In this document: positions 3,246 to 63,689 of the stretch, piece by piece | Numbering within the stretch: position 1 is the first letter of the stretch | How the letters are laid out: each line of letters opens with the position of its first letter | Virus record (IMG/VR): IMGVR_UViG_3300020171_000003 | Location: 16,533 to 80,532 of that record | DNA length: 64,000 nucleotides | Origin: a virus | Strand: one strand, 5' to 3' | Position numbers and translations under genes: made by a program | Notes under the pieces: model-generated | Database searches by the model: none | The model's input: only the letters and a program-made list of their open reading frames with translations | Told to the model about the DNA's origin: nothing

Positions 3246-3256
3246 AACTTTTCTCC

Positions 3257-4064: not shown

Positions 4065-4067
4065 TGT

Positions 4068-4667: not shown

Positions 4668-4678
4668 TAAACTTATCC

Positions 4679-5302: not shown

Positions 5303-5319
5303 TTTTAACACCTTTCCGG

Positions 5320-6292: not shown

Positions 6293-6672
6293 GCTGTTAG
6301 CTCCGCATAACATTTATCGGTTTCATATAATCTTACTTTTTCTAAAACAATGTGTTTCGGAAATTTATTTAAAAGAAGATAATAAATCCATCTACACATA
6401 TTTTCGGCTGTAGGGTTATCAAAAAGATCATTTAAATGGGTGTGGTCTAATTTATTAATTATCCAGGTATTAACTACTTCTGACATTCTTTGAAAATCAA
6501 GAATCATTCCAAACTCAGGATCATTCACATCTTGAACAGTATTCTCCTTATCTGAAACAGTTATTTCTAACCGAAAATTATGGCCATGCGGATTTTTACA
6601 CCTTCCCTGATGATTCGGTAAAAAATGTGAAGCCGCAAAGTCAAAGCTTTTACAAACAGTCATTGTTGGCAT
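6289..6672 (-). CDS. queD: 6-carboxy-5,6,7,8-tetrahydropterin synthase
   Basis: The 127-residue enzyme turns dihydroneopterin triphosphate into 6-carboxy-tetrahydropterin. It has the complete family signature: FDFAASHFL at residues 10-18 with His16, catalytic Cys25, PHGHNF with His29 and His31 for zinc, LDHTHLND at 75-82 (the Asp-His charge relay) and PTAENM near 87. The ATG at 6672 follows AAGGAGG. Size is typical. With FolE and QueE it forms the first three steps toward 7-deazaguanine bases. Confidence 0.95.
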   Translation of the reverse strand: MPTMTVCKSFDFAASHFLPNHQGRCKNPHGHNFRLEITVSDKENTVQDVNDPEFGMILDFQRMSEVVNTWIINKLDHTHLNDLFDNPTAENMCRWIYYLLLNKFPKHIVLEKVRLYETDKCYAELTA

Positions 6673-26566: not shown

Positions 26567-26595
26567 TTGACATTTATAGATGAATATCATAGAAT
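26567..26595 (+). promoter_or_regulatory. Promoter at the head of the late region
   Basis: TTGACA (26567-26572), a 17-base spacer and TAGAAT (26590-26595), then AAAGGAG and ATG 26621. Confidence 0.8.
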
Positions 26596-26620
26596 AATAG
26601 ATATGAAAGGAGTACAAAAG

Positions 26621-27226
26621 ATGGCAATAAAAGCAATGCAAAGCGTAACCAGAGTACCAACCACATACGATTCACTCATATCCGGATTAGCCGTGAATGA
26701 AGAAAAGCAATCCGTAGTCCGTCCGTTATACACTTGGGATTACGTCCAAGAATGCACGGAACGCTGTCCGGCTTATGAAGGAACCACATGTCATTTCAAT
26801 AAGGATGTCCGGACGAATAAGCGGTGTAAGGTGATGGACATGTATTTGAAAGGTGTAGCGGATACGGTGATGTTAGCATACCCGAAGGATGAGATAATTG
26901 ACCCAAGAACATTGTGGAGAGTCGGAATGCATCTCATGCCGTTGTACCAGATGTTAGGACGGATGAAGATAGAGGAGGCCACGTTTCATACTGTTATATT
27001 TACGGATGATAAAGGCCGAAGGAAAGCCAACCCAATATATAAGGAGATACGGGAGACATTGAAACAGATTGAAAGTGCTTGGAGGGACTTGAATCTCGGA
27101 GGAAGTTTGGGGGAAGGTTATCTGGACTTCGGAGATAAGAGTCCGTCGGGCAGAGGTGCTAATTTAACTGATCCGGATGATTATTATACCCGGATGCAGA
27201 AAGGCGGGAGGCAGGTGAAGACATGA
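26621..27226 (+). CDS. Possible terminase small subunit (P27-like)
   Basis: The 201-residue protein has an N-terminal Cys cluster (CTERCPAYEGTTCHF, then KRCKVM, residues 45-72) and a C-terminal half whose stretch NPIYKEIRETLKQIESAWRD (residues ~143-162) resembles the P27-type small terminase pattern of an N-P-x-Y/L start and helical pair before the oligomerisation core. ATG 26621 with AAAGGAG is the only well-supported start. It lies first in the late operon, two kilobases before the large subunit, where a DNA-recognition subunit is expected. The assignment is tentative. Confidence 0.5.
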   Translation: MAIKAMQSVTRVPTTYDSLISGLAVNEEKQSVVRPLYTWDYVQECTERCPAYEGTTCHFNKDVRTNKRCKVMDMYLKGVADTVMLAYPKDEIIDPRTLWRVGMHLMPLYQMLGRMKIEEATFHTVIFTDDKGRRKANPIYKEIRETLKQIESAWRDLNLGGSLGEGYLDFGDKSPSGRGANLTDPDDYYTRMQKGGRQVKT

Positions 27227-37676: not shown

Positions 37677-37701
37677 ACTATTTAATCAACTGAGGTTGAA
37701 A

Positions 37702-39762: not shown

Positions 39763-40454
39763 GACCTTTAGTAATTGCTTCAAATATGTTAATGGAAGCG
39801 AACAATGATTTAGAAGGTTGGATTGAGAATATGCAACAAGTTACTGATTTGGGCATTCTTGTTGTGGACGGCGGTTCTACTGACGGAACAAAAGAGATTT
39901 TAGAGGCTGCTGGAGTTATTGTTATTACAGATAATATAATTCAAAGAGAAGGATACGGACCTGCAAGAAATCAATTAAGAAAACTTTGTAAAGAGAACTT
40001 TCCAGAAGCTCATTGGATGGCTTATTTTGATGCTGATGAAAGAATCAATGAAAAAGACATTCATTTTTTGAAATGGGTTCAAAACTATTTAAATGAAAGC
40101 GTTTCTGATGTTGTTGCTTTTCCAAGAATTGATTGGTTTGATAAAGAGAAAACTAAATCAAATAATGATATACGGATAGTTCCGGATTTTCAAGCAAGAA
40201 TGACAAGATTAAATGCTCCTTTGGAATATATAAGAATTTGTCATGAACAGATTGTAACAACTAAAGGCATTTTTTGTAATATAGATGTTTGTCCGCCTAT
40301 TCATCATTTTCATAGGTCAGCAAGTAAAGATAAGCGTGATTACATTGGTAAGGTCTGTGCTATGCTTCATTCTAAAGATCCATATGGACATACTTATCCG
40401 AAACACCATAAAGAAGATTATTATTTTGATTTGTATCAGAAAGAAGGTTTATGA
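39759..40454 (+). CDS. GT2-family glycosyltransferase
   Basis: The 231-residue GT-A enzyme has the family marks VVDGGSTDGTKEIL (residues ~35-48), YGPARNQLRKL near 67 and the metal-binding DADER near 91. The C-terminus is His-rich (CPPIHHFHRSASKDKRD). ATGA overlap with the GT4-GT9 gene makes it part of the same translation-coupled block. Confidence 0.8.
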   Translation: MRPLVIASNMLMEANNDLEGWIENMQQVTDLGILVVDGGSTDGTKEILEAAGVIVITDNIIQREGYGPARNQLRKLCKENFPEAHWMAYFDADERINEKDIHFLKWVQNYLNESVSDVVAFPRIDWFDKEKTKSNNDIRIVPDFQARMTRLNAPLEYIRICHEQIVTTKGIFCNIDVCPPIHHFHRSASKDKRDYIGKVCAMLHSKDPYGHTYPKHHKEDYYFDLYQKEGL

Positions 40455-48026: not shown

Positions 48027-51000
48027 ATGGCAATAGCAAATAGAGAAATAGGTCTAGGTACAATATTTTATGCGAAGGGTATTGACGAGCTTATCCGTAA
48101 GATCAAACTACTCCGTCAGGTAGTTATCCAGCTATCTGACGGACCTACCAAAGTAGCAAAATCTTTAAATACACTTACAACGGCATCCAATAAAGCCACT
48201 GCGGCAATGAAGAAGCAAGGGGATGTTTCCCAAACTTTTAATAAGCAGATAGGTAAAGTTGAAGGCGGTATAAAGAGAATGGCGCAAGCTATTAAAGTAA
48301 CTGCTGCTTATTCTCTTGCTGCCAAAACTTTATGGGGATTCACTTCTGGTATTCAACAAGGAATAAAAGAGATAATAGATTTTGATCAAGCTTTAAAGAA
48401 TATTCAAGCGGTATCAGGATCTACTACAGCCCAGCTTTCTGTAATGGAAGATGTGATGCTGAAAATTGCAAGAACGACTAAATTTTCAGCTACAGAAATT
48501 GGCGAGGGCATGGTGTATATTGCACAAGCCGGTTTTGATGCAGGAGAGGCTGTGGATGTTGTTTCTGCTTCGGCAGCATTAGCTTCTGGTACTTTAAGTA
48601 GTTTGCAACAAACTTCTGACCTTTTAACAACTACTCTCCGTGCTTTTCAAATGGAATCACAAAGAGCAGGTGAGGCAGCGGATATTATGGCTGTTGCAAT
48701 CAACTACTCTAAATTGGACGTGGAGAAATTAAGAACAGCTTTTAACTATGTTGGTGCAGCAGGTTATCAAGTAGGATTAACTTTAAATGAAGTAGCCGCT
48801 TCTATGATGGTTGTTGCTAATAATGGTATGAGAGCAAGTACCATAGGTACCGGTTTACGCCAGATGTTTTCAAGGATGATTGCTCCTTCTGGTAAGTTAA
48901 AAGAAGCTTTTGAAAAGTATGGAATATCTTTAGATAGTATTAATCCAAAAACGGTAGGTTATCAAAAAGCTTTAGGAAATTTATCAAAAGTTATTATGAA
49001 GGCAGATGGTGTTACTGTTGACATGACAAAAGCTTTTGAGTTATTTGGATTAAGAGGTGCCCAATCCGTTGCAATTTTAGCAGAAGCATTTGCTAGCGGT
49101 AAATTTCAAAAAGCTTTAAAATCAACGTATGAAGTAGGTGTTGCTGCGGAGATGGCAGCAAAACAGTCAGAAGGTTTGGCTTTTAAATTAAAGAATTTAT
49201 CAGATAATTTCGGGGCATTAGCAATCACTTTAGGTAAAGGAGGATTTACTGATCTTTTAAAAATGGTAGTAGATGGATTTCAAAGTCTTTTAAAAGTTAT
49301 AATTGATATATCTGGTTCATCTATAGGTAATTTAATTTTACAAATTGTCACTCTTACTACTGCTTTGACCAGTCTAGGCATTGCTTTAACATTATTAGGT
49401 AAAATTTTACAGTTAACTATTTTACCTTCTTTGAAAGTATTTTTTGGTTTAATAGCGTCACATCCTTATGTTGCGGCTTTTACAGTGGCTATTTCGGCTC
49501 TTATTGTTGTTTACAAACATTTTGCAGGAGCAACGGAAAAAGCAACGGAAGCAATGAAGAAACAGTATGAAGAAACTAAAAGAACAGCTGGAGTTTTAAA
49601 TTTTTATGGTCGATTAATGACAGACCAAGTAGAGAAAATGAAAAAGACCTCAGAATTAACAGAGGAACATTTAGCTACTTTACAGAGATTGAAAGAAGAT
49701 TATCCTAAATTATCCGGTTTAATTGATAATATGAAATTGTCTTATGAAGGTTATTTAGGAGTTTTAAAAGCTATAAATGATGAGGAAAGAGTTAAATCTG
49801 TAAATAATATCCAAGAATCTGTTAATATTTATAAAAAGTATTTGGATGAAATGAAAAAGTATGAAGCAGATTTTTATTCAATGGGAGAATTTACTGGTAA
49901 AGGAGTAGCAATTACTCCGGAACTTCAAAAAAGAAAAGATATGTATGTTCAAGCGGCTAAGGATGCTAAAAAAGCTTTTGAAGTTATAGAGAGTACTTTT
50001 TATAATTATTCATCGAAAAGAACTGGTAAATCGGCTGAAAATGCAAAACTGATGTTGAAGGGTTTTGGGTTGGATGCAGATGATATAGCCAAACTTTCTA
50101 CTACTCTTATTCCGCAATTAGAAAGCCTAGATGCTACCATTGCAGCAAAAAAGAAATCGGCGTTAGAAGGATCTGCTGAGGATGAAGTGAATTTAACTCG
50201 CCAAACTCAAAAAAAGATACTTGATTTAAAAGTTAGATCAGCGGCTACAGAAAGAGACCGCTTAATTGCTACTCATAATAAAAATTTAGCTGATATTGCA
50301 GAAGAAGAAAAAGCAGCCTTAGTAAAGAATACTAGTTATAATGAAAAAGAAAAAGCAGCCATTGCTTCTGAATATAATAAAATTCGATTGGAAGAGAATA
50401 GAAAATTTGCTATTCAAATGGCAGGTGTAGAAGTAGATATTGCGGAGAGAGCAATAAAGATAGAAGAACTCCAAACTAAAATTATGTACGAAGGTAAAGT
50501 AGTAGAAGCTTTAAAAGCAGGAGTAAAATTAAATACTATTCGTGAGATGGAAAAACAATCTGAAATTGATTTGGCAGTAAAGATTTTAGAGATAAGAAAA
50601 ACTTTATATGAAAATGTAAAAAATCTTTATAAAGGCGGAAAAGGCGGGGAAGAGGATCAATCTAAAGCTTTAAATCAGGTTCTTCAAGCTGAATTAGCAA
50701 TAGCTACAGGAAAAAAAGAACTTGCAGAACTTACCGCAAAAGAAATAACAAAGAGTGAAGATAAAGAACTAAAAGCCCGTTTAAAATTAGTAGCTAAATA
50801 TTCAGATGAATGGATGGCTATTTATAAACAAATGCGGGACCAAAATCTTATTACAGAAACAGAGTATGAAGAAGCTTTAAGAAGAAAGACAGCAGCTACA
50901 GGAACTTGGTTAGAACAATTAAAATACGGAATAAATGAAAGCAGAAAAAATATCCAATCTTGGGGTGAATATATGATCCAGATTGGAGAAGAAATCGGAG

Positions 51001-51563
51001 TTAAACTTGCTGATGGAATAGGTACTGCGGTAGCTGATTGGGTCACTGGTGCAAAGACAATGCAAGAAGCTTTTGCAGCTTTAGCACAGGATACATTAGC
51101 TTGGTTAACTAAGATGATTGTGCGTATGCTTGTTTTAAAAGCAATTGAAGCAGGAGTAAATGCTATATTTCCGGGAGCAGGCACTGCTTTTTCTGCTTTT
51201 GTTAAACATGGAGGTGTTCGTTCTTCTAATGTAACTAGAAGTGTTCCTTCTGAAATGTTTGTAGGTGCTCCGAGATTACATTCTGGTTTAATTCGTTCTG
51301 ATGAAATGCCTGCTATATTGAAAAAGAATGAATCAGTATTAACACCAGAGCAAATGAAAGCAATGGGCGGGGGAAAACAAATTCAGATAACAAACAGTTT
51401 TGCTGGAGCTACATTTTTAGATCAAGAGCAGATGAGAAGGACAATGGCGCAGGTTTCTACTATAACAGCCCAAGTAGTTGTAAAAGCAATGGGTCCAGAT
51501 ACTGTAATAAATGCAATTCAGAATGATCATCCTTTAAGACAAGTTATTCAGAGAGGTTATTAA
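48027..51563 (+). CDS. Tape measure protein
   Basis: The 1178-residue protein sets tail length. Residues ~115-290 form the TP901-type core (FDQALKNIQAVSGSTTAQLS; GIRTGLRQMF-type end), followed by two or three hydrophobic stretches (near 425-455 and 475-495), long coiled coils (500-960) and a Gly-rich C-terminus. Length would correspond to a tail of roughly 170-180 nm at 1.5 angstrom per residue, a rule of thumb only. Confidence 0.9.
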   Translation: MAIANREIGLGTIFYAKGIDELIRKIKLLRQVVIQLSDGPTKVAKSLNTLTTASNKATAAMKKQGDVSQTFNKQIGKVEGGIKRMAQAIKVTAAYSLAAKTLWGFTSGIQQGIKEIIDFDQALKNIQAVSGSTTAQLSVMEDVMLKIARTTKFSATEIGEGMVYIAQAGFDAGEAVDVVSASAALASGTLSSLQQTSDLLTTTLRAFQMESQRAGEAADIMAVAINYSKLDVEKLRTAFNYVGAAGYQVGLTLNEVAASMMVVANNGMRASTIGTGLRQMFSRMIAPSGKLKEAFEKYGISLDSINPKTVGYQKALGNLSKVIMKADGVTVDMTKAFELFGLRGAQSVAILAEAFASGKFQKALKSTYEVGVAAEMAAKQSEGLAFKLKNLSDNFGALAITLGKGGFTDLLKMVVDGFQSLLKVIIDISGSSIGNLILQIVTLTTALTSLGIALTLLGKILQLTILPSLKVFFGLIASHPYVAAFTVAISALIVVYKHFAGATEKATEAMKKQYEETKRTAGVLNFYGRLMTDQVEKMKKTSELTEEHLATLQRLKEDYPKLSGLIDNMKLSYEGYLGVLKAINDEERVKSVNNIQESVNIYKKYLDEMKKYEADFYSMGEFTGKGVAITPELQKRKDMYVQAAKDAKKAFEVIESTFYNYSSKRTGKSAENAKLMLKGFGLDADDIAKLSTTLIPQLESLDATIAAKKKSALEGSAEDEVNLTRQTQKKILDLKVRSAATERDRLIATHNKNLADIAEEEKAALVKNTSYNEKEKAAIASEYNKIRLEENRKFAIQMAGVEVDIAERAIKIEELQTKIMYEGKVVEALKAGVKLNTIREMEKQSEIDLAVKILEIRKTLYENVKNLYKGGKGGEEDQSKALNQVLQAELAIATGKKELAELTAKEITKSEDKELKARLKLVAKYSDEWMAIYKQMRDQNLITETEYEEALRRKTAATGTWLEQLKYGINESRKNIQSWGEYMIQIGEEIGVKLADGIGTAVADWVTGAKTMQEAFAALAQDTLAWLTKMIVRMLVLKAIEAGVNAIFPGAGTAFSAFVKHGGVRSSNVTRSVPSEMFVGAPRLHSGLIRSDEMPAILKKNESVLTPEQMKAMGGGKQIQITNSFAGATFLDQEQMRRTMAQVSTITAQVVVKAMGPDTVINAIQNDHPLRQVIQRGY

Positions 51564-52019
51564 ATGGCTGATTTCTCTTATGAACCAAACTATGTTCATG
51601 CACCTTCTCCAGTGATGCCTGTAGAAGTAACTTATAGTAAGAATTTCACTAGGAGAGTGTATAGAACTGGAATAGAATTTATTCGTAAATTTGAACTTGT
51701 GTTTGGTAATGTTAATTTAGAAAAAAGAAATTTATTAAGAAGTCATTTTGAAGGTCAATTTGGTCCACATTTATCTTTTACATGGACTACTCCTCCAGAA
51801 TATGTTTCTGATTATGAGTTCACAGTAAATTATGATGAAGAAGCTTCTGGTATGGGTTATTATGAAGAAACACCTGAAGTCGGTGGAAATGTTTTTAATA
51901 TTAGTGTTTATTTTAAGGCTTTAGGATCAGCTCCTGTTTTTAAAGAAAGTCTTATTGTCTTTCAAGATACGGAAGATGTTATTTTTCAAGATACAACTGA
52001 TGTTATTTTTCAGGATTAG
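51564..52019 (+). CDS. Minor tail protein (gpM-like), copy 1
   Basis: The 151-residue protein follows the tape measure without a gap, as lambda gpM does. NLLRSHFEGQFGP and YYEETPEVGGNVF are shared exactly with the copy at 60217-60672. The C-terminus ends in a short repeat (VFQDTEDVIFQDTTDVIFQD) that recalls sheet-forming tails seen before spikes. It probably caps the tail tip. Confidence 0.7.
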   Translation: MADFSYEPNYVHAPSPVMPVEVTYSKNFTRRVYRTGIEFIRKFELVFGNVNLEKRNLLRSHFEGQFGPHLSFTWTTPPEYVSDYEFTVNYDEEASGMGYYEETPEVGGNVFNISVYFKALGSAPVFKESLIVFQDTEDVIFQDTTDVIFQD

Positions 52020-52028: not shown

Positions 52029-54077
52029 ATGAAAAAATTTATTATTTTTATCATATTATTTATATTCAGTAGTTTATCTGTATTTGGTGCAGATGATACA
52101 AAAATTAGAATTTACACTGGTAACGCATTAAATACAGGTGCAAAAGGATCATTAGATAATCTTGATGGATCAGATGGAGTAGGGGATGGTTCAGGAAAAA
52201 CTTTAAAAGACGGTGATATAGCAATAATTATTGTTCCTGGAGATCAGACTTATTTTTATTCTTTGGATTCTGATTCTGGAGCTACTGAAAGTATTCCTGA
52301 TGTTATTTCTCCTAATTATAATGCAGGCACGAAACGATGGATTTTAGTTTCCGTAAATCAAAAAGGTGAAGTCCCTTTCTCAAAGTTCCATACGAATTTA
52401 ACAGCGATTATCACAGCTATAGGAGCAATAAAAACTACTTTGGTTATTGATGAATCTACTACATTAATAGATAATGCTACTCCACCCTCCACCCTGGCCC
52501 TGAAAGTGCAGAACGGGGCGGTGATTACGCTTGTGGCTTACGCCTTGAATCTTAGCCTTTGCCCTAAATTTGAAGGGTCGCCAGGATGTTTTAATCAGGC
52601 TTCAACGGGTTCAGTAACAGGTTTAAAGGAATCAAGACCCGAATGGTTTGGACTTGACGGGGTTGCTGACCAGGTAGCAATAAATAAGTCCCTTGCTGCC
52701 GGTCCAACGAAACTATCAAAACATGATTACCTTACTAATGGTGCTGTGCTTATAGATGACGACGATTATTCCCTTAAAGGACTTGGGCCAGGGTTGTCAA
52801 GGATCATATCTTCTGAATCAGGCGGGACTATATTAAAAGTCGGTGATGGCACAGCAGTTTACAGGACTGAAATTGAAGGTGTTGGTTTACGCACAAACAC
52901 TACAGGTAGCCGGGCGGCGATTGGTCTTGACATAAACGGTATGCGAGAGGGCAAGATTAAAAACGTAAGGTCGAGCTTCGCAACCGGAAAGTTAATGACC
53001 TTAATCGGTGAATCTTGGTTAAATTCTTTTGAAGACGTTGAGCTATATGGTTACGCTTCCGCAACTGCTTTAGAAACAGGCGGGGTAAATATTAATTCCA
53101 ATCAGTTTAAAAATCTTACCATTACTGATGCTTCAACAGGATTAACGAGTGGGGTCAAATTTGTTGATGGTGTGAGGGGATTATTTTTTGACGGGATTTC
53201 AATCGAAGCTTGCGCCAGCGGGATCGACCTTTGTCCTTCCACAAAAGTGTTAAGTCTTACCAAGATTGGGTTTGAAAATGTTTATTCTGAGATCCCTGCA
53301 ACAGGATACTTTTTAAAAGCGGATGATACATCATATTACGTCAATGTAGAAAATATCTCATTTGACGGTGTGAGCTTAAACCAACTTGGGGCAGCGGCAA
53401 GGGATTCCGCTTTTGACTTTTCTAGATTAACCAACCAAGCGGATTCACTTATAAAGATTAACGTGTCGAATCTAAACCACCATGCAGTAAACATAACCAC
53501 GTTGACCCGCGCTGTCTTTGATCTTACGTCGAAAGTAAGATTGAATATGATCAATTCTACCAAAACCGTGTCGGCAACTCCCTGGACAATCGGTGGTAAT
53601 AATTACAACATAATCGAAACAGGTTACGAGCAAAGCAAAATAACCTCCTACGACTTGAACTTCCCGATTGGAAAGACCTCTTTTGGCACAGCAGCGACCA
53701 CCACACTCAACAGGCTGACAAATGGTGGGTTGCAGGCTACGCCAGGGATTGGGCAGAAGTGGCAAGCTCCTTTATCGGCTACCGCTGCGGTCGCTATAAA
53801 TTGCGCCAGCGGAATGAATATCTATCACACGTTGACTGAAAGCACGACAATAGGCGCACCCACAAACACTATTGACGGGGCAGTTTTATACTTTGTCTTT
53901 CATCAACCAGCAGGGGCAACGTGGACGGTTTCCTTTAACGCTATTTTTAAACTGGTAGGCGGGGCATACAGTATGACAGGTTCAGGAGGAGCGGTTGTGA
54001 GGGACACGATCTGTTTTATGTACAGCGCAACGGCTGATAAATGGATCGAAATCAGTAGGGCACAAAATATAAGTTAA
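52029..54077 (+). CDS. Tail spike 1, signal-peptide start and beta-helix body
   Basis: The 682-residue protein begins with an apparent signal peptide (MKKFIIFIILFIFSSLSVFG then ADD). Residues ~20-120 are a collar-like domain, then TTLVIDESTTLIDN and PSTLALKVQNGAVI near 152 open a right-handed beta-helix of the pectate-lyase type, probably binding or cutting host polysaccharide. Base composition rises sharply from about 52480, inside that domain, to the stop. It lies between the gpM- and gpL-like genes, an unusual place. The 3' end shares 23 bp with spike 2. Confidence 0.75.
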   Translation: MKKFIIFIILFIFSSLSVFGADDTKIRIYTGNALNTGAKGSLDNLDGSDGVGDGSGKTLKDGDIAIIIVPGDQTYFYSLDSDSGATESIPDVISPNYNAGTKRWILVSVNQKGEVPFSKFHTNLTAIITAIGAIKTTLVIDESTTLIDNATPPSTLALKVQNGAVITLVAYALNLSLCPKFEGSPGCFNQASTGSVTGLKESRPEWFGLDGVADQVAINKSLAAGPTKLSKHDYLTNGAVLIDDDDYSLKGLGPGLSRIISSESGGTILKVGDGTAVYRTEIEGVGLRTNTTGSRAAIGLDINGMREGKIKNVRSSFATGKLMTLIGESWLNSFEDVELYGYASATALETGGVNINSNQFKNLTITDASTGLTSGVKFVDGVRGLFFDGISIEACASGIDLCPSTKVLSLTKIGFENVYSEIPATGYFLKADDTSYYVNVENISFDGVSLNQLGAAARDSAFDFSRLTNQADSLIKINVSNLNHHAVNITTLTRAVFDLTSKVRLNMINSTKTVSATPWTIGGNNYNIIETGYEQSKITSYDLNFPIGKTSFGTAATTTLNRLTNGGLQATPGIGQKWQAPLSATAAVAINCASGMNIYHTLTESTTIGAPTNTIDGAVLYFVFHQPAGATWTVSFNAIFKLVGGAYSMTGSGGAVVRDTICFMYSATADKWIEISRAQNIS

Positions 54078-54149
54078 CTTCAACCAGCGGAGAGGACGGG
54101 ATGAAATGGTAGCAAGCTTAATTGTTAACCTAAGATTTAGGAAACCATA

Positions 54150-55019
54150 ATGAAAGAACTTGATAATAATATTATTACAGAAATTGATGCTTCACAAAAG
54201 ACGCCTATTATTTTAGTAGAGCAATATTTAGATGGAGCTACTTTAAGATGGGCTTTAGCAAAAGAGAATATTATTTTTGGCGGATTCACTTATTTTGCCA
54301 AAACTTTTACAGTAGATGATGTGGATTTTTCTTTTGAAGGTCAATTGGATAAAGTTTCTTTAAATTTTGATAATATAGATTCTGCTTTTGATGCTTATAT
54401 AGAGGCTTTTGATTTTGAAAGCAGACCTATGTTTATAAAAAGAATTTATCTTTCTGGTGAATTAGAAGAAATACCATCTAATCCTGAAATGTATAATGAA
54501 GTATTTTATGGAGAGATGGAACAACCTACAGATTCAGATGGTAGAAATATTAATATTACTGCTGTTTCTGGATATTCTTTGGATAAAGGAATGTTAAATC
54601 AGTATTACGGATCTTTTTGTCAAAGAAAGTTTGGGGATAGACTTTGTACTGTAAATTTAGCGGATGAGAATTACTATTTTAAAAAAGGTATAGTAAGTGG
54701 CGAAGGAACAACTTCTAAATTTAAAACAAATTCTTTGCTTGAAGCAGATAATTTTTGGAAACATGGTAATGTAAAACTTAATATAGATGGGTCTATTTAT
54801 AATAGAAAAGTAAAATCTTTTTCCAGTAATGGAGCATCCGGGGAAGTTACTTTGGATATTGGAATTATTGAAACAATAGACCTTGGTTCTACTTTTGAAA
54901 TAAAGAAAGGTTGTGATTTTACATGGGAAACTTGTTCTGGAAATAATACATGGGGCCCCTCAGGTGAAAATACTTTAAATTTCTTTGGATTTATCCATAT
55001 AGGTATTAATAAGGAATAA
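54150..55019 (+). CDS. Tail tip protein, gpL-like
   Basis: The 289-residue protein matches lambda gpL in place and in its C-terminal half: SFCQRKFGDRLCTVNL (around residues 155-170) and KKGCDFTWETC (around 252-262) bring four cysteines together, the set that holds a [4Fe-4S] cluster in lambda gpL. The N-terminal half is a DUF2163-like beta domain. Upstream DNA is a 72-bp remnant following spike 1. Confidence 0.75.
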   Translation: MKELDNNIITEIDASQKTPIILVEQYLDGATLRWALAKENIIFGGFTYFAKTFTVDDVDFSFEGQLDKVSLNFDNIDSAFDAYIEAFDFESRPMFIKRIYLSGELEEIPSNPEMYNEVFYGEMEQPTDSDGRNINITAVSGYSLDKGMLNQYYGSFCQRKFGDRLCTVNLADENYYFKKGIVSGEGTTSKFKTNSLLEADNFWKHGNVKLNIDGSIYNRKVKSFSSNGASGEVTLDIGIIETIDLGSTFEIKKGCDFTWETCSGNNTWGPSGENTLNFFGFIHIGINKE

Positions 55020-55021
55020 TA

Positions 55022-55399
55022 ATGATAAAACGAATTACAGAACCTTCAGAAATGAAATTTATTCTTTTACTTAATGATGATATTGAGGAGTATATTGAGT
55101 ATGACCGATCAAGTTGGATTCAGTGGCTTGTATCAAATGTTAAGAATCCTTTATTTGGTATATTTGGAGATGAAGAAAATAAAAGTTATATAGTAGCTTT
55201 GTGTATTAAATCTTCTCCGTTATTTAATTGTGTTCAAATTATCTATTCATATAATCAGTTTGATGGTTTATTAGAAAAAGTAAAAGAGTGGACAAAAGAA
55301 TTGAATTTAACAAAAATCCTTTGTTCTTTTGACAATTTAAATGAAGGAGAAAAAAACGGTTTTATTGTTAAAAATTATCTTATGGAACTTGAGGTTTAA
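55022..55399 (+). CDS. GNAT-like acetyltransferase or unknown tail protein
   Basis: The 125-residue protein sits where gpK/gpI would be but has no NlpC/P60 motif. Its alternating strands and helices, and the ending EKVKEWTKELNLTKILCSFD followed by EKNGFIVKNYLMEL, resemble the last part of a GNAT fold. No clear acetyl-CoA loop is visible. Uncertain. Confidence 0.4.
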   Translation: MIKRITEPSEMKFILLLNDDIEEYIEYDRSSWIQWLVSNVKNPLFGIFGDEENKSYIVALCIKSSPLFNCVQIIYSYNQFDGLLEKVKEWTKELNLTKILCSFDNLNEGEKNGFIVKNYLMELEV

Positions 55400-55401
55400 T
55401 T

Positions 55402-58400
55402 ATGAGTTTACTCGGAAAAATAGGAGCACTGGTTGGAGCAGTTGTAGGTGTAGCTTTAGTTGCCACAGGAGTAGGTGCGCCTTTAGGCGGTGCTTTACTT
55501 GGAGCTGCAATAGGAATACCTACCGCATTAGGGGCGGCTCTTACTTATGGAGCAATAGGTTTTGTAGCAGGAACTGTTTTGGATTATGCTTTAGGAGCAG
55601 TAGTTCCAGATATTCCTTCACCTACTTATGATGGAACTTTTCCTGTACCTATATTAGAATCTGGAGCAATTATTTCAGAAGCATACGGAGGTCCTCTTTA
55701 TATAGCTGGAAATATTTTGAGAATGAATGACCCAGATGCAGAAGATAAATTAAAAATAATTGTAGGACATTGTTTAGGACCGGTAGAAGAATTTTTAGGA
55801 ACTTATGTTAATAAAAAAGAATGGAATACTTTAGATAAAGTTCATCATATGGTTCATAGTTATGGAGAAGAATATCAGGTTCCTATTAAAATAACAACTT
55901 CTATAGCGATTGATCAACCTTACTCTAGTAAAACTTTATTTGGCATGTTGACCCTTGTAGTTAATGCATATAAAAGTTTATCTGTTGTTGATAATTTTTT
56001 TACTGATAAAATATGTTCTTTTAGAGGATTAGCCCATAGTGCTTACCTATTTGATAAAAGTTCTTCGGATATAGGAACAAATACTCCGTCTGTGGTAGAA
56101 GTGATAAAAGGAAGAAGATTAATTCCCATTGCTTTGAATGGTGTAGAAGGAGAATTAGAATGGAGTAGAAATATTGGAGATATTCTTTGGGATTATTATA
56201 GAAGGTATGATGTAGCCAGTATAATTGATGAACAACAAATAGGATTTTGGGCTTTTAATGAATCCATAGGAAGTATTGCTGTAGACAGTAGTAAATATGA
56301 TAATAATGGTACTTTACATAATTTTACAGGCACATATTGGGTAGAAGGTCAATTCGGAAACGGTTTACAATTTAACGGTTCAAATTCTTATGTTGATTGT
56401 GGAAATTTAATTCCTTTATCTTTAATAGGTAAGCAGAGTTTTTCTTTATCTTTTATGATTAGTTTTGATTCTGTTACAGGTATTATTTGGCAAAAATATG
56501 AAGATTCTTCCAATTATATTAAAGTTTTTATAAGCGGAGGATATCTAAAAATTGAAGCAAAAAGTTTAGGGTCTTATATTATTAATGAATCTTTTAATTT
56601 TTATCCAATAGCAAATATTGAATATAGAATAGTTCTTTGTTTTGATAAAACAAATCTTGTTTGTTCCTTATATGTGAATAAATTAAAAGATACAATAGAA
56701 GTGGGTTGGAATACTGATACAGATATTTCTAACACTGGTAATGTATTTTGGGGGAGTACTTCTTCCTCTTTTGCTGGTGTTTTAGATCAAGCTCGTATTT
56801 ATAATAAAGTTTTGGATTTTAGAGAAGTTTTTGCTTGTTATGAAGATGGTATTTTAGATGAAAATTCTTTTCGATCTTTAAAAGAGTATTCGGATGAATT
56901 TTTAGAAGATTCAGAAGGTTCTCCGATGAGACCTATTGGCCCAAGTAATTATACAGTAATAGCTTCGAGTCAATTCGGTCAAACTATAAATAGAAATAAT
57001 ATTGCTTCTATTGCTACAAAATTATTTGCAATTATAGGAGAACCAAGGAAAAGTCTTATTGTTACAGGAACTTCTCCTGTAACACATACAAGTGATTATG
57101 GTATATATTCTCCTATTTATGCTTTCGATGTTACAAAAAGTCTTACTTCTGCACCAGAAAATAACTCTTGGAGAAGCGGGAATTTTAGTTATTTTATAGC
57201 TTCAAGAATAAGTTGTGATTTAAGTTTGCCGGTAAAATTAAGAAAAGTAGAGATTATACCAGAAGCAGATATTGGTTTAAAAACTTTTTATGTTCAAGGT
57301 AGCAATAGTGTTTTAGATTTTTTACAATATGAATATAATGATATTGGAACAACTTGGACAGTATTAGGGTCATTACAAACAGCCGTTCCTTATGATTCAA
57401 CTAATCCGGTTCAGAAATTTTATATAAATTCAGATGTTGCTTATAGATACTATTCTTTAAAAATTATGTCTTCTTATGGTATTACTACAGGAATTAGAGA
57501 CATTTGTTTTTGGGGAATACATCCTAGGTTTCCTTTTGATCATGTTTTTGATAATAATATTAGAAAAAATGATGTTAAGAAATTATTAAACTCTTGTTTT
57601 TTTGGAAGAACTTTTAGAACTCAAGGAAAAATAAAAGTAGGATGGGAAGGAAACAAAGAACCAGACGGATTAGGGAGTTTACAAGATAAGAGCGTAAAAC
57701 ATATTTTTACTTTAAATAATGTTATTTCTTTAACTAGGAAAAAACATACTAGGTATAATAAAATAAAAATTAATTATATAAATTTTACAGAAGAAGGTAA
57801 AAAAGATTATATAGAAGATTCTGATGAAATTGATATTGAAAAAAGAGGTGAACAATTATTTGAAGAATCTTGTGATTTTATTTACCATCAGCAAATAGCA
57901 AGAGCCCGAGCAAGAAGGCATTTGAAAAAATCAATGTATTGTGATTGGGATTGTGTAATTGAGTCAACTGATGAAGCTAATAGAGTAGAATTATTTGATG
58001 TTATTTCCGTAATTTGGTCTAAATTTGGTTGGAACGAAAAACAATTTATTGTAATGAAGAAGACAGAAGATTGGTTAGGAAGAGTTACTTTTTATTGTGA
58101 AGCTTATTATTCTGGAATTTATGATGATGAAGAAACACCTGTTCCAGAATCTTATTTTTCTAAACTTTCTAAAGTACTTGGAACTCCGTCTCCAGTAACC
58201 AATTTACAAGCTTTGGATGATTCTTATTTTGATGAACAAGGTAGTTATATTACTCAGGTAGAGATTTCTTATACTCCTCCGAATAATAGAAATTATTTTT
58301 CTCATATAAAATATCAATACGGTTTCAAACTTACAGGAGAAAATTTAATTACTTCAGGAGAATCTCCTGTGGTTTATATGCAACCATCATACTATGCAAA

Positions 58401-59811
58401 TATAAATGTAGGTGATATTCTTTTTGTTTCTGGAGAAGAAGTTACTGTAGGAGAAAAATTAGGAGATTCTTCTTCTGTTCTTGTTGGTAAATCTTTACTT
58501 TTATCTGGAGAAGTTTTTTCTTCTGATTATGTTTCTTTTTTTGACTATCCAGGAAAAGATACAGGTGTAGGTTATTTTACTTTAGACGGAAGAAATATGA
58601 ATTTGGAAATAGGAGATGATCTTTATGTAAAAGCTATTTCGGTAAATACATTTGGAATAGAATCTGGATTATTTTCTCCTTATACTTCTTTATATAAAGG
58701 AGAAGTTACTTTATTAGGATTACAAGAAGCTTTAGCCTCAGGTAAAAAAAGAATACTTTTACCTGACGGTATTTATAGCGGAGAATTTACTTTACCAGAT
58801 CAAGATGTTATAATAGAAGGTGTTTCTAAATCCGGTGTTATTTTTACTAATATGCCTAGCCAAAATTTATTTATTCTCCATAATTTAAATAGTAATTATG
58901 CTTTTAAAAATTTTACTTTACAAAGTAATGTAGATGGTACTTATCCTAAATTATTTAATATTACCGGTGATACTGAGGCTCAAAATTTAGCTAATATATC
59001 TTTTGATAATCTTTCTTTTATTGGAAAAGCTTCCAGAAGAGACAGAGCTATTTATGGATATAAAGGCAAAGGAAATATTGCTATTACAAATTGTCATTCC
59101 ATAAGTGGAGAGATTAATTTTGTTGATTATACTACTTCCAAATTTAATATAAGTAAAAATATAATGGAAAGTAACATATTTTATGCTTTCCAAATTTATT
59201 GTGATACGATTAATATGGAAGAAAATCAATGTTTAAATTATACAGGTGTAGGTATGCTTATTTATCCTACAAATACTGCTAATGTAAATAAAAATTATTT
59301 ATATACAAGAACAGGTTGTGCTTCTATTACAGGTATTAATATTTTTACTACCACAGGTGACATTAAAGCTGTTCAAAATAAAATTGATTTGGATACTTCT
59401 AGTTATTCAAATTCATCTACTAATACAGGTTTAAAAATTAGTAATGATTCTACCGGTATTTCTTTTATTTCAGATAATAATATAAATTTAAAAGCTCATA
59501 GCAATAGTGCTACTAAAGGTCTTTATTTTTATTCTTCTACTGGCATTGGTGGTTCTGTTATAGGAAATACTGTTGTTGTTAACAATATAAATACTCCTTC
59601 AGATAATAATTTGGGTATAGAACTTTTAAGTAATAATGCAACTATTACTGGAAATAGTATTAATTTGGTAAATAATTCAGCTAAAGATATTGGTATTTCT
59701 TTACATGCTGCTTACGGTTATAATAAAGGTACAGATAATATTACTTACAATGTCGGCACTTCAATTTTGGATGCGGGAACAAGTAATGATGTTTTAGCAA
59801 AGGATGTTTAA
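55402..59811 (+). CDS. Central tail tip / host-specificity protein (gpJ-like) with LamG-type insert
   Basis: The 1469-residue protein has a Gly/Ala-rich hydrophobic N-terminus (residues 8-70) as in many tip proteins, hub domains to ~270, and again from ~570 to 900 with NNRNYFSHIKYQYG (fibronectin-like area near 955). Residues ~280-485 look like a concanavalin/LamG domain (IGFWAFNESIGSIAVDSSKY; GLQFNGSNSYVDCG), a carbohydrate-binding fold. From ~1105 to the end a beta-helix (RILLPDGIYSGEFTLPDQDV onward) forms a spike-like tip. It should form the baseplate hub and contact the host. Confidence 0.75.
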   Translation: MSLLGKIGALVGAVVGVALVATGVGAPLGGALLGAAIGIPTALGAALTYGAIGFVAGTVLDYALGAVVPDIPSPTYDGTFPVPILESGAIISEAYGGPLYIAGNILRMNDPDAEDKLKIIVGHCLGPVEEFLGTYVNKKEWNTLDKVHHMVHSYGEEYQVPIKITTSIAIDQPYSSKTLFGMLTLVVNAYKSLSVVDNFFTDKICSFRGLAHSAYLFDKSSSDIGTNTPSVVEVIKGRRLIPIALNGVEGELEWSRNIGDILWDYYRRYDVASIIDEQQIGFWAFNESIGSIAVDSSKYDNNGTLHNFTGTYWVEGQFGNGLQFNGSNSYVDCGNLIPLSLIGKQSFSLSFMISFDSVTGIIWQKYEDSSNYIKVFISGGYLKIEAKSLGSYIINESFNFYPIANIEYRIVLCFDKTNLVCSLYVNKLKDTIEVGWNTDTDISNTGNVFWGSTSSSFAGVLDQARIYNKVLDFREVFACYEDGILDENSFRSLKEYSDEFLEDSEGSPMRPIGPSNYTVIASSQFGQTINRNNIASIATKLFAIIGEPRKSLIVTGTSPVTHTSDYGIYSPIYAFDVTKSLTSAPENNSWRSGNFSYFIASRISCDLSLPVKLRKVEIIPEADIGLKTFYVQGSNSVLDFLQYEYNDIGTTWTVLGSLQTAVPYDSTNPVQKFYINSDVAYRYYSLKIMSSYGITTGIRDICFWGIHPRFPFDHVFDNNIRKNDVKKLLNSCFFGRTFRTQGKIKVGWEGNKEPDGLGSLQDKSVKHIFTLNNVISLTRKKHTRYNKIKINYINFTEEGKKDYIEDSDEIDIEKRGEQLFEESCDFIYHQQIARARARRHLKKSMYCDWDCVIESTDEANRVELFDVISVIWSKFGWNEKQFIVMKKTEDWLGRVTFYCEAYYSGIYDDEETPVPESYFSKLSKVLGTPSPVTNLQALDDSYFDEQGSYITQVEISYTPPNNRNYFSHIKYQYGFKLTGENLITSGESPVVYMQPSYYANINVGDILFVSGEEVTVGEKLGDSSSVLVGKSLLLSGEVFSSDYVSFFDYPGKDTGVGYFTLDGRNMNLEIGDDLYVKAISVNTFGIESGLFSPYTSLYKGEVTLLGLQEALASGKKRILLPDGIYSGEFTLPDQDVIIEGVSKSGVIFTNMPSQNLFILHNLNSNYAFKNFTLQSNVDGTYPKLFNITGDTEAQNLANISFDNLSFIGKASRRDRAIYGYKGKGNIAITNCHSISGEINFVDYTTSKFNISKNIMESNIFYAFQIYCDTINMEENQCLNYTGVGMLIYPTNTANVNKNYLYTRTGCASITGINIFTTTGDIKAVQNKIDLDTSSYSNSSTNTGLKISNDSTGISFISDNNINLKAHSNSATKGLYFYSSTGIGGSVIGNTVVVNNINTPSDNNLGIELLSNNATITGNSINLVNNSAKDIGISLHAAYGYNKGTDNITYNVGTSILDAGTSNDVLAKDV

Positions 59812-59813
59812 TT

Positions 59814-60215
59814 ATGAATGCTATTCTATATCAAAAAGGATCAAATGAGATTGTTTATTTTGTGAAAGATTGTGTTAAGCACGGTAATGATTTTATTGGT
59901 TCTAATATGAAACTTTATGGATGTAAATCTTTTGAAGTTCTTTGGACAGAAGATGAAGAAGTAAAAGGACAAAAACTTAATAAAATAAAAAGTTCTGTTA
60001 GTAAGACAGAAAGACGTTCGATTAATGTTCAAGAGTATCAGGCGTCCGTAAAAATTATTCAATTGCTTGATGATATAACATTTACCAATTTAGAAAAGCA
60101 TATCGACACAAGCATTACAGATTTGGAAACAGCTAAGAGCTTCATAAAATTGATGGCTGCTACATTAAAAGCTGTAATTGAGATTCAAAACTATGATTCT
60201 AAGAAAGGAAAATAA
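59814..60215 (+). CDS. Unknown 133-aa tail-region protein
   Basis: An acidic/basic helical protein ending AKSFIKLMAATLKAVIEIQN, which resembles the end of some tail-fibre-associated proteins. It starts two bases after the gpJ-like stop. No firm family. Confidence 0.5.
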   Translation: MNAILYQKGSNEIVYFVKDCVKHGNDFIGSNMKLYGCKSFEVLWTEDEEVKGQKLNKIKSSVSKTERRSINVQEYQASVKIIQLLDDITFTNLEKHIDTSITDLETAKSFIKLMAATLKAVIEIQNYDSKKGK

Positions 60216-60216
60216 T

Positions 60217-60672
60217 ATGGCTGATTTTTCGTATCAACCAAATGTAGTTCATTCTTTTCCTGCTATACCTAATATTGATGTTACTCAAGGACAGAAGTAT
60301 ATGCAGAGTTCTTATAAATGGTCTGATAGATTTTTAAGAAAATATGAACTTAGATTTGGATATGTGAATAGGGCAAAAAGAAATTTATTAAGAAGTCATT
60401 TTGAAGGTCAATTTGGTCCATATAAAGCTTTTAATTGGATAAATATTCCTTCTTATGTTTTTGGTATTATAGAAGGTTCTCAAGTAAATTATGATGAAGG
60501 ATCAGAAGGACAAGGTTATTATGAAGAAACACCTGAAGTCGGTGGAAATGTTTTTGCTGTAAGAATAACTTTTATTTATAGTTCTTCTGCTTCATTTTTT
60601 ACAATTGATTCGGAAGATGATTTGGTTATTCTAGATGAATCAGGAATACCTATTTATTCGGAGGAGTATTAA
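60217..60672 (+). CDS. Minor tail protein (gpM-like), copy 2
   Basis: ATG 60217 follows AAGAAAGGAAAATAAT. The 151-residue product has the same length as copy 1, the same MADFSY start and identical core motifs, with long identical DNA runs, but a different C-terminus (DDLVILDESGIPIYSEEY). The variable end adjoins its own spike, suggesting each copy adapts one spike to the tail. Confidence 0.7.
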   Translation: MADFSYQPNVVHSFPAIPNIDVTQGQKYMQSSYKWSDRFLRKYELRFGYVNRAKRNLLRSHFEGQFGPYKAFNWINIPSYVFGIIEGSQVNYDEGSEGQGYYEETPEVGGNVFAVRITFIYSSSASFFTIDSEDDLVILDESGIPIYSEEY

Positions 60673-60673
60673 A

Positions 60674-62743
60674 ATGAAAAAATTATGTGGTGCTATTCTT
60701 TTCTTATTTGTTAGTGCTGGAATTCTAATAGGAGCAAAAGGTTCTGATTATATTTTAGTAACTTCTATTACAGGTTCTGATTATGTTATTGGAGTAGATA
60801 TTTCTAACACAAGTATGGCTACAACAGGAACTACGAGCAGATTTAAATTTGAGAATTTTCCTATTTCAATTTTAGTTCAAGCGGCATTAGATTTAAAACA
60901 AAATTTATTGCATAATGTAGAATTTGTTTCTGAATATGGAAATAGTGTAAATACAGCAGTAGCCGCCATCGGGGCAACCGAAACCACCCTAATTATCGAC
61001 GAGTCCACCGCCCTAACCGCCAGCGTAACCTGGCCCTCCACCCTGGCCCTGAAAGTACAGAACGGGGCGGTGATCAGTGGGGCCTATACCTTGGCATTGG
61101 CAAACTGCTCAAAGTTCGAGGGTGCGCCTGGGTGCTTTGGGAGTGACATAACCGTCACAGGGCTACAGGAGGCTTATCCTGATTACTGGACCCAAAACGT
61201 ATTACCGGGAACCACAAACATGTCGGTTGCTATTGGAAAAGCCCATGTCGCCTCGGCAAATGGGGCTGTCCTATGGAAATCAGCAACATACGCAATGTCA
61301 GCAGGGGAGAGTATAACCCTCACCGGATCATGCACTTGGATGAGTGAAGGAATCACAACTATAAAATATACCGGGGCTTCAGCGGCTACCATGATTTACC
61401 TTGCCCTTGGTGGTGATTTTACGATTTCCGGGGGGAAGGTTATTCTTGACGGAAATAGCACAGTAGGGACCGGGCTTAGAGTTGACAACGATAAAGCAAC
61501 AATGGCCGATGCCGTTGATATGACTATCCGGGACTTGGAAGCTAAGAATTTCTACTCAGACGCAAACAGCCGGAATGCCATGGGGTTTTATGCTTATGGT
61601 GCGTTTAACAAAATTATGTTCGATAATTGCAAGGCAAAGAACATCAGTCGTGCCGCTGTCCTCACAGGAAGCCCGGCCTGCATAGGTTATGGTTATGGGC
61701 ATGGAGGGATAGTTAATTACGCAAAGAGTGTCACGTTTATAAACCCGGTCATTGATACGGTAACAAACGCAGACGCAACAGGGGCGGAAACTGAAGTCGA
61801 TATGGACGGCATTAACATCACCGGCCCTGATGCAAACGCAAACGCCGGGGTGAAAATGCCCACTTCGCTTGTAGTTCTTGGGGGTACTTTTAGAAACTGC
61901 ACTGGTCGATCAATTAAAAGCCAGATGGAAAGCAACCTTGTTGACGGGCCTACTTTTATTAAAGATTCGGATATGCTGAAAAAAGCAGCCGCATCTATCC
62001 AAGAAGTTGATTTTCAGTACGGGTCTGGTGTGCTTACAAACTTTAAGTGCCGATACGGTTTAAACGCAGGTGGAACAACCCCCTTCCCGACCTCTTGGGC
62101 AATCTGCAATGCCTCTGTAAGAGGTTTTGCCGTAGAAGAAGGGGCATTGGTAGTGACCAATGGAGAAATCACAAATGATATCCCGCAGGCAACCGACCTA
62201 ATGCCATACTTGGTCACACTTGTCAGAACAGCCGGAAACTTCCAATCAGTAATAGTAAGCAACAATACTTTCCTCGGAGTCGGGGCCGTTGATACGTTTA
62301 TTTTAAACAATTCTGATTATGTTAAAAAAATTGTGGCAAACGACAATTACATAAACGACCTTGGAGTATCTTTAATTTACGGCACTTCCTATCCAAGCGC
62401 AATCGTTCAGGCTAGCGGAAACTATCTCTCAGGAACTTCTAGACTTATATGTGACGGTGGGACTTATCCTTTCTGGTATGGAGAAGGGAACTATGGCTTT
62501 TCAACTTTAGGTAAATCTCGTAGAAAAGGAGCCGCTACGGCCATTTCAGATGGTGGAACGATAACACATTACATGGGCGCTGCTCCTAATTCAGTTCGCA
62601 TAACCGGGTCAGTAGCGGACGAAATAGTAGCCGTTACGGCTATATCTGCGACAACCTTTACGGTATCAATTAAAAAAAGAACTGACGGATCAGCAGGCAC
62701 AGCCCAAACGATTTATTGGGATGCTGACATGGGGATGTTATAA
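60674..62743 (+). CDS. Tail spike 2, signal-peptide start and imported beta-helix body
   Basis: ATG 60674 follows GGAGGAGTATTAAA. The 689-residue protein begins MKKLCGAILFLFVSAGILIG then AKG, again like a signal peptide. From residue ~97 (base 60960) the DNA becomes GC-rich: AAIGATETTLIIDESTALTA then PSTLALKVQNGAVIS, a beta-helix start shared with spike 1, and a repetitive body to the end. Enzyme activity against surface polysaccharide is plausible but no catalytic residues are obvious. Confidence 0.75.
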   Translation: MKKLCGAILFLFVSAGILIGAKGSDYILVTSITGSDYVIGVDISNTSMATTGTTSRFKFENFPISILVQAALDLKQNLLHNVEFVSEYGNSVNTAVAAIGATETTLIIDESTALTASVTWPSTLALKVQNGAVISGAYTLALANCSKFEGAPGCFGSDITVTGLQEAYPDYWTQNVLPGTTNMSVAIGKAHVASANGAVLWKSATYAMSAGESITLTGSCTWMSEGITTIKYTGASAATMIYLALGGDFTISGGKVILDGNSTVGTGLRVDNDKATMADAVDMTIRDLEAKNFYSDANSRNAMGFYAYGAFNKIMFDNCKAKNISRAAVLTGSPACIGYGYGHGGIVNYAKSVTFINPVIDTVTNADATGAETEVDMDGINITGPDANANAGVKMPTSLVVLGGTFRNCTGRSIKSQMESNLVDGPTFIKDSDMLKKAAASIQEVDFQYGSGVLTNFKCRYGLNAGGTTPFPTSWAICNASVRGFAVEEGALVVTNGEITNDIPQATDLMPYLVTLVRTAGNFQSVIVSNNTFLGVGAVDTFILNNSDYVKKIVANDNYINDLGVSLIYGTSYPSAIVQASGNYLSGTSRLICDGGTYPFWYGEGNYGFSTLGKSRRKGAATAISDGGTITHYMGAAPNSVRITGSVADEIVAVTAISATTFTVSIKKRTDGSAGTAQTIYWDADMGML

Positions 62744-62765
62744 CTTCAACCAGCGGAGAGGACTG

Positions 62766-62864
62766 ATGACCCCGAACCAATTAAAGAAAAAGCTCCGAAA
62801 GGTTTTTGAGCAAATTGTGAAGAAGCAAATTGATGACTTACTAAACCCAAAGAATCACAAATAA
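62766..62864 (+). CDS. 32-aa gene brought in with spike cassette
   Basis: ATG 62766 follows GGAGAGGACTG, part of the 23-bp block shared by both spikes. The product is basic and helical (MTPNQLKKKLRKVFEQIVKK). The equivalent place after spike 1 has only ATG-AAA-TGG-TAG. Probably a donor-phage gene, perhaps no longer needed. Confidence 0.5.
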   Translation: MTPNQLKKKLRKVFEQIVKKQIDDLLNPKNHK

Positions 62865-62880
62865 AACCGGAGGCCAGCGA

Positions 62881-62940
62881 ATGCCTGAATGTTTACCCAA
62901 CCATTGGTTCAAACTAAGAAGCGGAGTTGAAACAGTATAA
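62881..62940 (+). pseudogene. 19-codon frame, likely remnant of donor lysis gene start
   Basis: CGGAGGCCAGCGA-ATGCCTGAATG closely matches CGGAGGCCAACTA-ATGCCTGAAAA at the holin-like gene (63438), but the frame stops after 19 codons. It looks like the leftover start of the donor phage's downstream gene. Confidence 0.45.
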
Positions 62941-62992: not shown

Positions 62993-63080
62993 AAATTAAA
63001 ACAATCAATCTCCTTAAAGAGAACCTTAAAACCATACCCGAGCGAATGCTCATAACTTTTAATTATTGGGAGGTTCTATA

Positions 63081-63410: not shown

Positions 63411-63437
63411 TTTAAAAAAAGAAGCGGAGGCCAACTA

Positions 63438-63689
63438 ATGCCTGAAAAAGATGTTCCTTTATGGATTAAACTGTTTTCTGCTGTAGCTGTTATGGCAACA
63501 GGTGCTATGGCAAGTTTACGTGGAGTTTTTGTTACTCATTCTAAATTTGAAACAGAACAAAATAAATGTCAAATAGCTATTCGGAGAGATTTACAAGAAA
63601 TTAAAGAGGAACAAGAAAGTCATAAATCATACTTAATAGTAATTGCAGAAAGACTTGGAATTAAAAACGGGGATATTCCAAAAATATAA
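63438..63689 (+). CDS. Holin-like membrane protein
   Basis: The 83-residue protein has one membrane helix (LWIKLFSAVAVMATGAMASL, residues 8-27) and a charged coiled tail (QIAIRRDLQEIKEEQESHKS). One-span proteins of this kind next to an endolysin often act as holin or XhlA-like lysis proteins that let the endolysin reach peptidoglycan. Eleven bases separate it from the endolysin start. Confidence 0.6.
   Translation: MPEKDVPLWIKLFSAVAVMATGAMASLRGVFVTHSKFETEQNKCQIAIRRDLQEIKEEQESHKSYLIVIAERLGIKNGDIPKI

What the first reader, a model, noticed from the sequence alone, without database searches (positions are those of the whole stretch)
52485..62763. Two tail spikes as exchangeable cassettes
Both spikes switch from AT-rich to GC-richer DNA inside the same domain. 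They share 41 bp (52485-52525 and 61034-61074, one mismatch) and 23 bp starting at the stop codon (54075-54097 and 62741-62763), while the bodies differ. This fits replacement of receptor-binding domains by recombination through short conserved borders, from a donor pool of higher GC.
Basis: partly seen in the sequence, partly recalled or inferred. Interest (0 to 1): 0.7.

Follow-up and report, generated by a model that had tools for sequence, protein, structure and literature searches.

The report
Two phage spikes with swapped ends
An unusual AT-rich phage carries two spike-like genes whose host-contacting parts were apparently imported from GC-richer DNA through short shared border sequences, a clear example of a known way in which phages exchange their binding parts.

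Summary
Two spike-like ORFs (52029-54077, 60674-62743) share 40/41 bp (52485-52525 / 61034-61074) and exactly 23 bp from the stop codon on (54075-54097 / 62741-62763). No other exact match of 13 bp or more exists between them. Silent sites give the strongest evidence: at residues identical in both caps, codons match at 1/14 left of the tract, 12/13 in it and 4/21 right of it. GC3 jumps 0.138 to 0.422 exactly at 52485 in spike 1. In spike 2 it jumps 0.094 to 0.453 at ~60962, 72 bp upstream of its tract. An AT-coded repetitive, beta-helix-like region in the same phage (GC3 0.098) argues against protein composition as the cause. The cap recurs, with other bodies, in two IMG/VR phages of ~52% GC. 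The C-terminal modules recur at spike or fibre ends of unrelated phages. The phage encodes a RecA-family recombinase. So these are mosaic spikes with bodies imported at short borders. That kind of exchange is known: 44-nt and 20-nt borders are published for E. coli phages. Not shown: the DNA borders occur in no other phage searched, so no donor pool or repeated exchange is demonstrated. Both proteins begin with a Sec-like signal peptide, unexpected for a virion spike.

The parts
51564..52019 (+). gene directly after the tape-measure gene, upstream of spike 1; paralogue of 60217-60672 (distal-tail/gpM-like by position)
   Evidence: 47% aa identity to the second copy, blocks 77-79% nt; position after TMP
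52029..54077 (+). spike 1, 682 aa: signal-peptide-like N-terminus, AT-rich N-terminal domain, cap, GC-richer body, C-terminal module
52029..52484 (+). AT-coded part of spike 1 (GC3 0.138), including the AT-coded left half of the cap
52485..52525 (+). left border, copy 1 (41 bp, encodes PSTLALKVQNGAV; GC3 0.92)
52526..54074 (+). body and C-terminal module of spike 1 (GC3 0.37-0.50); last ~97 aa similar to C-termini of Caulobacter phage S2B tail fibre and Pelagibacter phage HTVC202P gp47
54075..54097 (+). right border, copy 1: stop codon plus 20 nt containing GGAGAGG; followed by a 3-codon remnant ORF (ATG AAA TGG TAG)
60217..60672 (+). second copy of the gpM-like gene, upstream of spike 2
60674..62743 (+). 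spike 2, 689 aa: signal-peptide-like N-terminus, short AT-rich N-terminal part, GC-rich cap, body, C-terminal module
60674..60961 (+). AT-coded part of spike 2 (GC3 0.094)
60962..61117 (+). GC-coded cap of spike 2 (GC3 0.75), containing the 41-bp tract
61034..61074 (+). left border, copy 2 (40/41 identical)
62534..62740 (+). C-terminal module of spike 2, 60% identical over 68 aa to the C-terminus of a pectate-lyase spike of podophage MW202691
62741..62763 (+). right border, copy 2: stop codon plus 20 nt; GGAGAGG is spaced as the ribosome site of a 32-codon ORF (ATG 62766)
62764..62925 (+). further GC-richer DNA after spike 2 with two tiny ORFs, probably imported with it
   Evidence: (GC slide), sequence

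Best explanation
The two genes are mosaic spike-type receptor-binding or depolymerase proteins of an AT-rich lytic-type siphophage-like virus. Each keeps a resident, AT-coded N-terminal part and carries a body plus C-terminal module acquired from GC-richer phage DNA. Recombination took place in the conserved cap that precedes the body (the AIGATETTL...PSTLALKVQNGAV element) and, at the other end, at a 23-bp tract that starts at the stop codon and holds the ribosome site of the next gene. Homology-dependent exchange by the phage's own RecA-family recombinase is the likeliest route. Shown: shared tracts, sharp silent-site breakpoints, codon identity confined to the tract, reuse of cap and C-terminal modules with other bodies in other phages. 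Inferred: the direction of transfer, the recombinase used, the receptor-binding function and any effect on host range.
For: Codon identity at identical residues: left 1/14, tract 12/13, right 4/21; about 1e-7 for all 13 codons matching by chance given body codon use. GC3 change-points at 52485 and 60962, far above shuffles. The 13 tract codons in spike 1 have GC3 0.92, against 0.138 before and 0.37 after. The C-terminal repetitive region of the resident 1469-aa tail protein, beta-helix-like by eye, has GC3 0.098, which argues against protein composition as the cause. 23-bp tract with 0 expected by chance. Cap relatives with other bodies in L003 and L010, about 52% GC. Spike-2 C-terminus 60% identical to the spike of podophage MW202691, E 2e-14. 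Spike-1 C-terminus matches fibre ends of S2B (E 3e-7) and HTVC202P (8e-6). RecA-family protein, SbcCD-like pair and 5'-3' exonuclease encoded in the same record.
Against: No donor and no close relative of this phage was found, so direction and recency are inferred. The DNA borders are found in no other phage. Sec-like N-termini are unexpected for a spike assembled in the cytoplasm. AlphaFold without an alignment gave no usable model (pLDDT 32-33), so the beta-helix fold is not shown.
Confidence: 0.8

Rival explanations
1. Intragenomic origin of the shared borders: the 41-bp and 23-bp tracts were copied between the two spike genes of the same phage (gene conversion), while the bodies were acquired separately and by other means, so the tracts are not general exchange sites.
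For: The tracts are known only from this genome. The spike-1 tract has the composition of the spike-2 cap (GC3 0.92 and 0.75) rather than of its own body (0.37). The unit gpM-like gene + spike is present twice.
Against: Two short separate tracts at equivalent ends, with nothing shared between them, need two conversions or a conversion followed by body replacement. GC-richer bodies still need an outside donor.
Confidence: 0.3
2. Compositional effect of the protein: beta-structured, Gly/Thr/Ala-rich bodies are GC-richer by amino-acid content, and the 41-bp tract is conserved by selection on the peptide or on an RNA signal.
For: Whole-gene GC2 is also higher in the two spikes than in the neighbouring genes (0.45-0.47 against 0.23-0.43). 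The peptide PSTLALKVQNGAV is identical in both.
Against: The switch is at third positions (0.138 to 0.42; 0.094 to 0.45). The AT-coded repetitive region of the resident tail protein has GC3 0.098. Identical residues on either side of the tract do not share codons.
Confidence: 0.03
3. Assembly chimaera between an AT-rich phage and a GC-richer phage at a shared repeat.
For: The window comes from a metagenomic record; short repeats can mislead assemblers.
Against: The reading frame is open across both switches. The longest exact shared word is 23 bp. The switches in spikes 1 and 2 are at different places, and AT-rich phage genes resume after both cassettes.
Confidence: 0.04
4. The two proteins are not virion spikes but exported beta-helix enzymes (for example polysaccharide-degrading) delivered through the Sec pathway, with exchangeable catalytic bodies.
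For: Both N-termini read MKK + hydrophobic stretch + GA, with the highest hydropathy of the protein in the first 20 residues and good ribosome sites.
Against: The genes lie inside the tail operon after a gpM-like gene. The C-terminal modules end tail-fibre and spike proteins of other phages.
Confidence: 0.2

Closest known systems
Conserved DNA motifs flanking the receptor-binding domain of lytic E. coli phages (44/95 nt before, 20 nt noncoding after; Gamaleya-, Kaguna-, Kayfuna-, Kutter-, Justusliebig-, Nouzillyvirus; PMC10408124)
   Same: [quoted passage not shown] proposed as recombination hotspots.
   Different: There the motifs are seen across six genera (63-81% identity) and the 3' motif is a predicted terminator. 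Here both copies lie in one genome at 98-100% identity, the 3' motif carries a ribosome site, and composition shows a foreign source. Sequence homology of the motifs was not tested.
T-even distal tail-fibre adhesin swapping between conserved motifs (Tetart et al. 1998, cited in PMC10408124)
   Same: Specificity segments exchanged through short conserved motifs (title of the cited work).
   Different: Different protein family; the paper itself was not read here.
Ongoing domain mosaicism of tail spikes and fibres (PMC10684548)
   Same: N-terminal, central and C-terminal fragments in new combinations; pectin-lyase-like domains are over-represented in recent mosaicism.
   Different: That study is at profile level; here a nucleotide-resolved breakpoint is visible.
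Podophage ctkAd229 (MW202691) pectate lyase superfamily spike
   Same: C-terminal 68 aa 60% identical to spike 2.
   Different: N-terminus and body unrelated, no signal peptide, 60% GC; only 12 of 40 identical residues share codons, so not a recent donor.

Membership tests
Mosaic tail spike with exchangeable receptor-binding body | Conserved N-terminal part with divergent body and C-terminus | tested here: inconclusive
   The cap is conserved and the bodies and C-terminal modules differ, but the N-terminal parts before the cap also differ between the two spikes, and no close relative was found in which a conserved anchor could be checked.
Mosaic tail spike with exchangeable receptor-binding body | Nucleotide breakpoint between resident and foreign sequence | tested here: met
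   GC3 change-points and codon sharing
Mosaic tail spike with exchangeable receptor-binding body | Trimeric right-handed beta-helix fold | tested here: inconclusive
   No Pfam or PHROG hit; AlphaFold pLDDT 32-33 without alignment
Mosaic tail spike with exchangeable receptor-binding body | Part of the virion, binds a host surface structure | not testable with these tools
   Only position in the tail operon and C-terminal similarity to tail-fibre proteins
Border-guided exchange (motifs before and after the receptor-binding domain) | Both flanking motifs present around different bodies | tested here: met
   Two bodies in this genome
Border-guided exchange (motifs before and after the receptor-binding domain) | Same DNA motifs around RBP genes of other phages | tested here: not met
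   0 hits in IMG/VR for the 31-bp and 21-bp cores and in GTDB genomes for the 41-bp tract; one chance hit in IMG/VR for a 17-bp core. Cap relatives exist only at protein level.

The most novel reading that the evidence does not exclude
The 41-bp and 23-bp tracts are maintained as exchange sites that let this phage lineage swap spike bodies between its own two spike loci and with GC-richer phages, for proteins that are exported through Sec before use.
Probability: 0.1. Interest if true: 0.6.

Novelty: new member of a known kind. Interest (0 to 1): 0.35.

Why it matters
Tail-spike mosaicism is usually inferred from protein comparisons. Here the breakpoints can be placed almost to the nucleotide from one genome, because resident and imported DNA differ in codon use and two events lie in the same cap. 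It suggests that exchange through short borders crosses a large base-composition gap, in a phage with no detected relative in the collections searched.

Tried and rejected
Exact and shortened border patterns in IMG/VR and GTDB genomes: no true hit; the single 17-bp hit (L008) lies inside a prohead-protease-like ORF (FSTSGEDRHGE) and is chance. Relatives of the gpM-like gene and of the tail gene 54150 in IMG/VR: none. TerL, major capsid and the 54150 gene against phage records: none at 1e-5. Distant blastn of the 3' flank: no meaningful hit. Cap relatives among GTDB genomes and named phages: none. N-terminal domain of spike 1 among named phages: none. C-terminal module of spike 2 by peptide patterns in IMG/VR: none. 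Single-sequence AlphaFold models: unusable, so no fold search was run. Hits of spike 1 to rIIA at E 0.3: chance. Reverse transcriptase or site-specific recombinase as driver: none seen among the ORFs scanned, but not every ORF was scanned.

Full report
What is there. The window is bases 16533-80532, the right end, of an 80.5-kb virus record. It is an AT-rich, lytic-looking siphophage-like genome: terminase, portal, S49 protease, capsid E, tape measure, tail hub, own replication genes and queuosine-type genes. The gene order in question is tape measure 48027-51563, gpM-like 51564-52019, spike 1 52029-54077, tail assembly/hub 54150-55019 (phrog_778, BR0599), 55022-55399, a 1469-aa tail protein 55402-59811, 59814-60215, second gpM-like 60217-60672, spike 2 60674-62743. 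Spike 2 starts at ATG 60674, behind ggagg, not at the mechanical ORF start 60635.

The repeats. The 41-bp pair (40/41) and the 23-bp pair (23/23) are as reported, and they contain every exact match of 13 bp or more between the two genes. The first encodes PSTLALKVQNGAV. The second begins with each TAA and holds GGAGAGG, which in copy 2 is spaced as the ribosome site of a 32-codon ORF at 62766; in copy 1 the following ORF is only three codons. A 41-bp match in coding DNA could reflect peptide conservation, so I compared codons at residues identical in both caps: 1 of 14 shared to the left, 12 of 13 inside, 4 of 21 to the right. By body codon use all 13 would match with probability about 1e-7. 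The tract therefore has a more recent common source than its flanks on both sides, which is what a recombination tract looks like.

The composition switch. GC3 change-point analysis puts the switch in spike 1 at 52485, the first base of the tract (0.138 to 0.422), and in spike 2 at 60962 (0.094 to 0.453), each far above shuffles. The left half of the cap in spike 1 is AT-coded, in spike 2 GC-coded, although many residues match. So the two junctions lie in the same cap at different points. Finer: the tract in spike 1 has GC3 0.92, its body 0.37; the spike-2 cap has 0.75, its body 0.44 and its C-terminal module 0.33. Spike 1 is thus probably at least three pieces. As an internal control, the repetitive C-terminal region of the resident 1469-aa tail protein (beta-helix-like by eye) has GC3 0.098 (the value for this region printed was computed in the wrong frame and is superseded), and 33 other ORFs average 0.218, so the shift is not a by-product of the protein. 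On the right side the foreign composition ends soon after 54097 in copy 1, and about 62925 in copy 2.

Related sequences. Protein-level relatives of the cap were found in two IMG/VR phages of about 52% GC: L003 and L010. There it joins different N-termini and different bodies. The last 68 residues of spike 2 are 60% identical to the end of a pectate-lyase spike of podophage MW202691 (about 60% GC); only 12 of 40 identical residues share codons, so this is not a recent donor. The last ~97 residues of spike 1 match the ends of the Caulobacter phage S2B tail fibre and Pelagibacter phage HTVC202P gp47. Cap and C-terminal modules are thus mobile parts in the wider phage world. The DNA borders are not found elsewhere: the 31-bp core and the 21-bp core gave no hit in 2.9 million viral contigs, the 41-bp tract none in 84,980 genomes, and a 17-bp core gave one chance hit. 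The phage has no detected relative by terminase, capsid or tail genes. The tools may leave out very near records, so this is not proof of absence.

Mechanism. The record encodes a RecA-family protein, an SbcCD-like pair and a 5'-3' exonuclease, so homology-dependent exchange by the phage's own machinery is plausible (inference). The cap serves as the left crossover zone; the right crossover lies at or after the stop codon, so the imported piece carries complete body and C-terminal module. Whether the two tracts are recurrent exchange sites, or were copied between the two spike loci of one genome, cannot be decided without another phage that carries them.

Comparison with what is known. The closest precedent is PMC10408124: in lytic E. 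coli phages a 44-nt (in part 95-nt) motif before the receptor-binding domain and a 20-nt noncoding motif after the gene are conserved across six genera and proposed as recombination hotspots. The architecture is the same; membership in the sense of shared motifs across phages was tested and not met here. PMC10684548 documents tail-spike mosaicism at profile level. I therefore rate this as a new, well-resolved case of a known kind (mosaic spikes), without claiming that the borders are an established exchange system.

Doubts. The proteins have no family hit, structure prediction without an alignment failed, and both N-termini look like Sec signal peptides (MKKFIIFIILFIFSSLSVFGA / MKKLCGAILFLFVSAGILIGA; hydropathy; no signal-peptide predictor was available). 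That is odd for a virion spike and may mean export or a different mode of assembly. The within-genome evidence for recombination is nevertheless strong; what fails is only the claim of general use.

Noticed in passing
52029-52091 and 60674-60736: Both spike ORFs begin with a Sec-type signal-peptide-like sequence (MKK + hydrophobic stretch + GA) behind good ribosome sites; unusual for phage tail spikes.
   Followed up: partly
51564-52019 and 60217-60672: A gpM/distal-tail-like gene is present twice, once before each spike (47% aa identity, blocks of 77-79% nt identity), suggesting an ancient duplication of the unit gpM-like + spike.
   Followed up: partly
62862-62884, 63027-63049, 63419-63441: Three similar ribosome-site stretches; the GC-richer copy at 62859-62889 resembles the start of the resident gene at 63438 (84% over 31 bp), hinting that the DNA imported with spike 2 came from a phage with a similar gene order after the spike.
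   Followed up: no
26486-27226: An ORF without Pfam or PHROG hit with GC3 0.45 (100-codon maximum 0.55), the only other strong composition outlier among the ORFs measured.
   Followed up: no
1022-6672 (- strand): Cluster of GTP cyclohydrolase, radical SAM (QueE-like by position), QueD-like and queuine tRNA-ribosyltransferase-like genes: possible 7-deazaguanine modification of the phage DNA.
   Followed up: no
37696-40454: Glycosyltransferase genes inside the structural gene region.
   Followed up: no
55402-59811: 1469-aa tail protein with a Laminin_G_3/ConA-like domain (aa 326-476, below Pfam's cut-off) and an AT-coded beta-helix-like C-terminus.
   Followed up: partly
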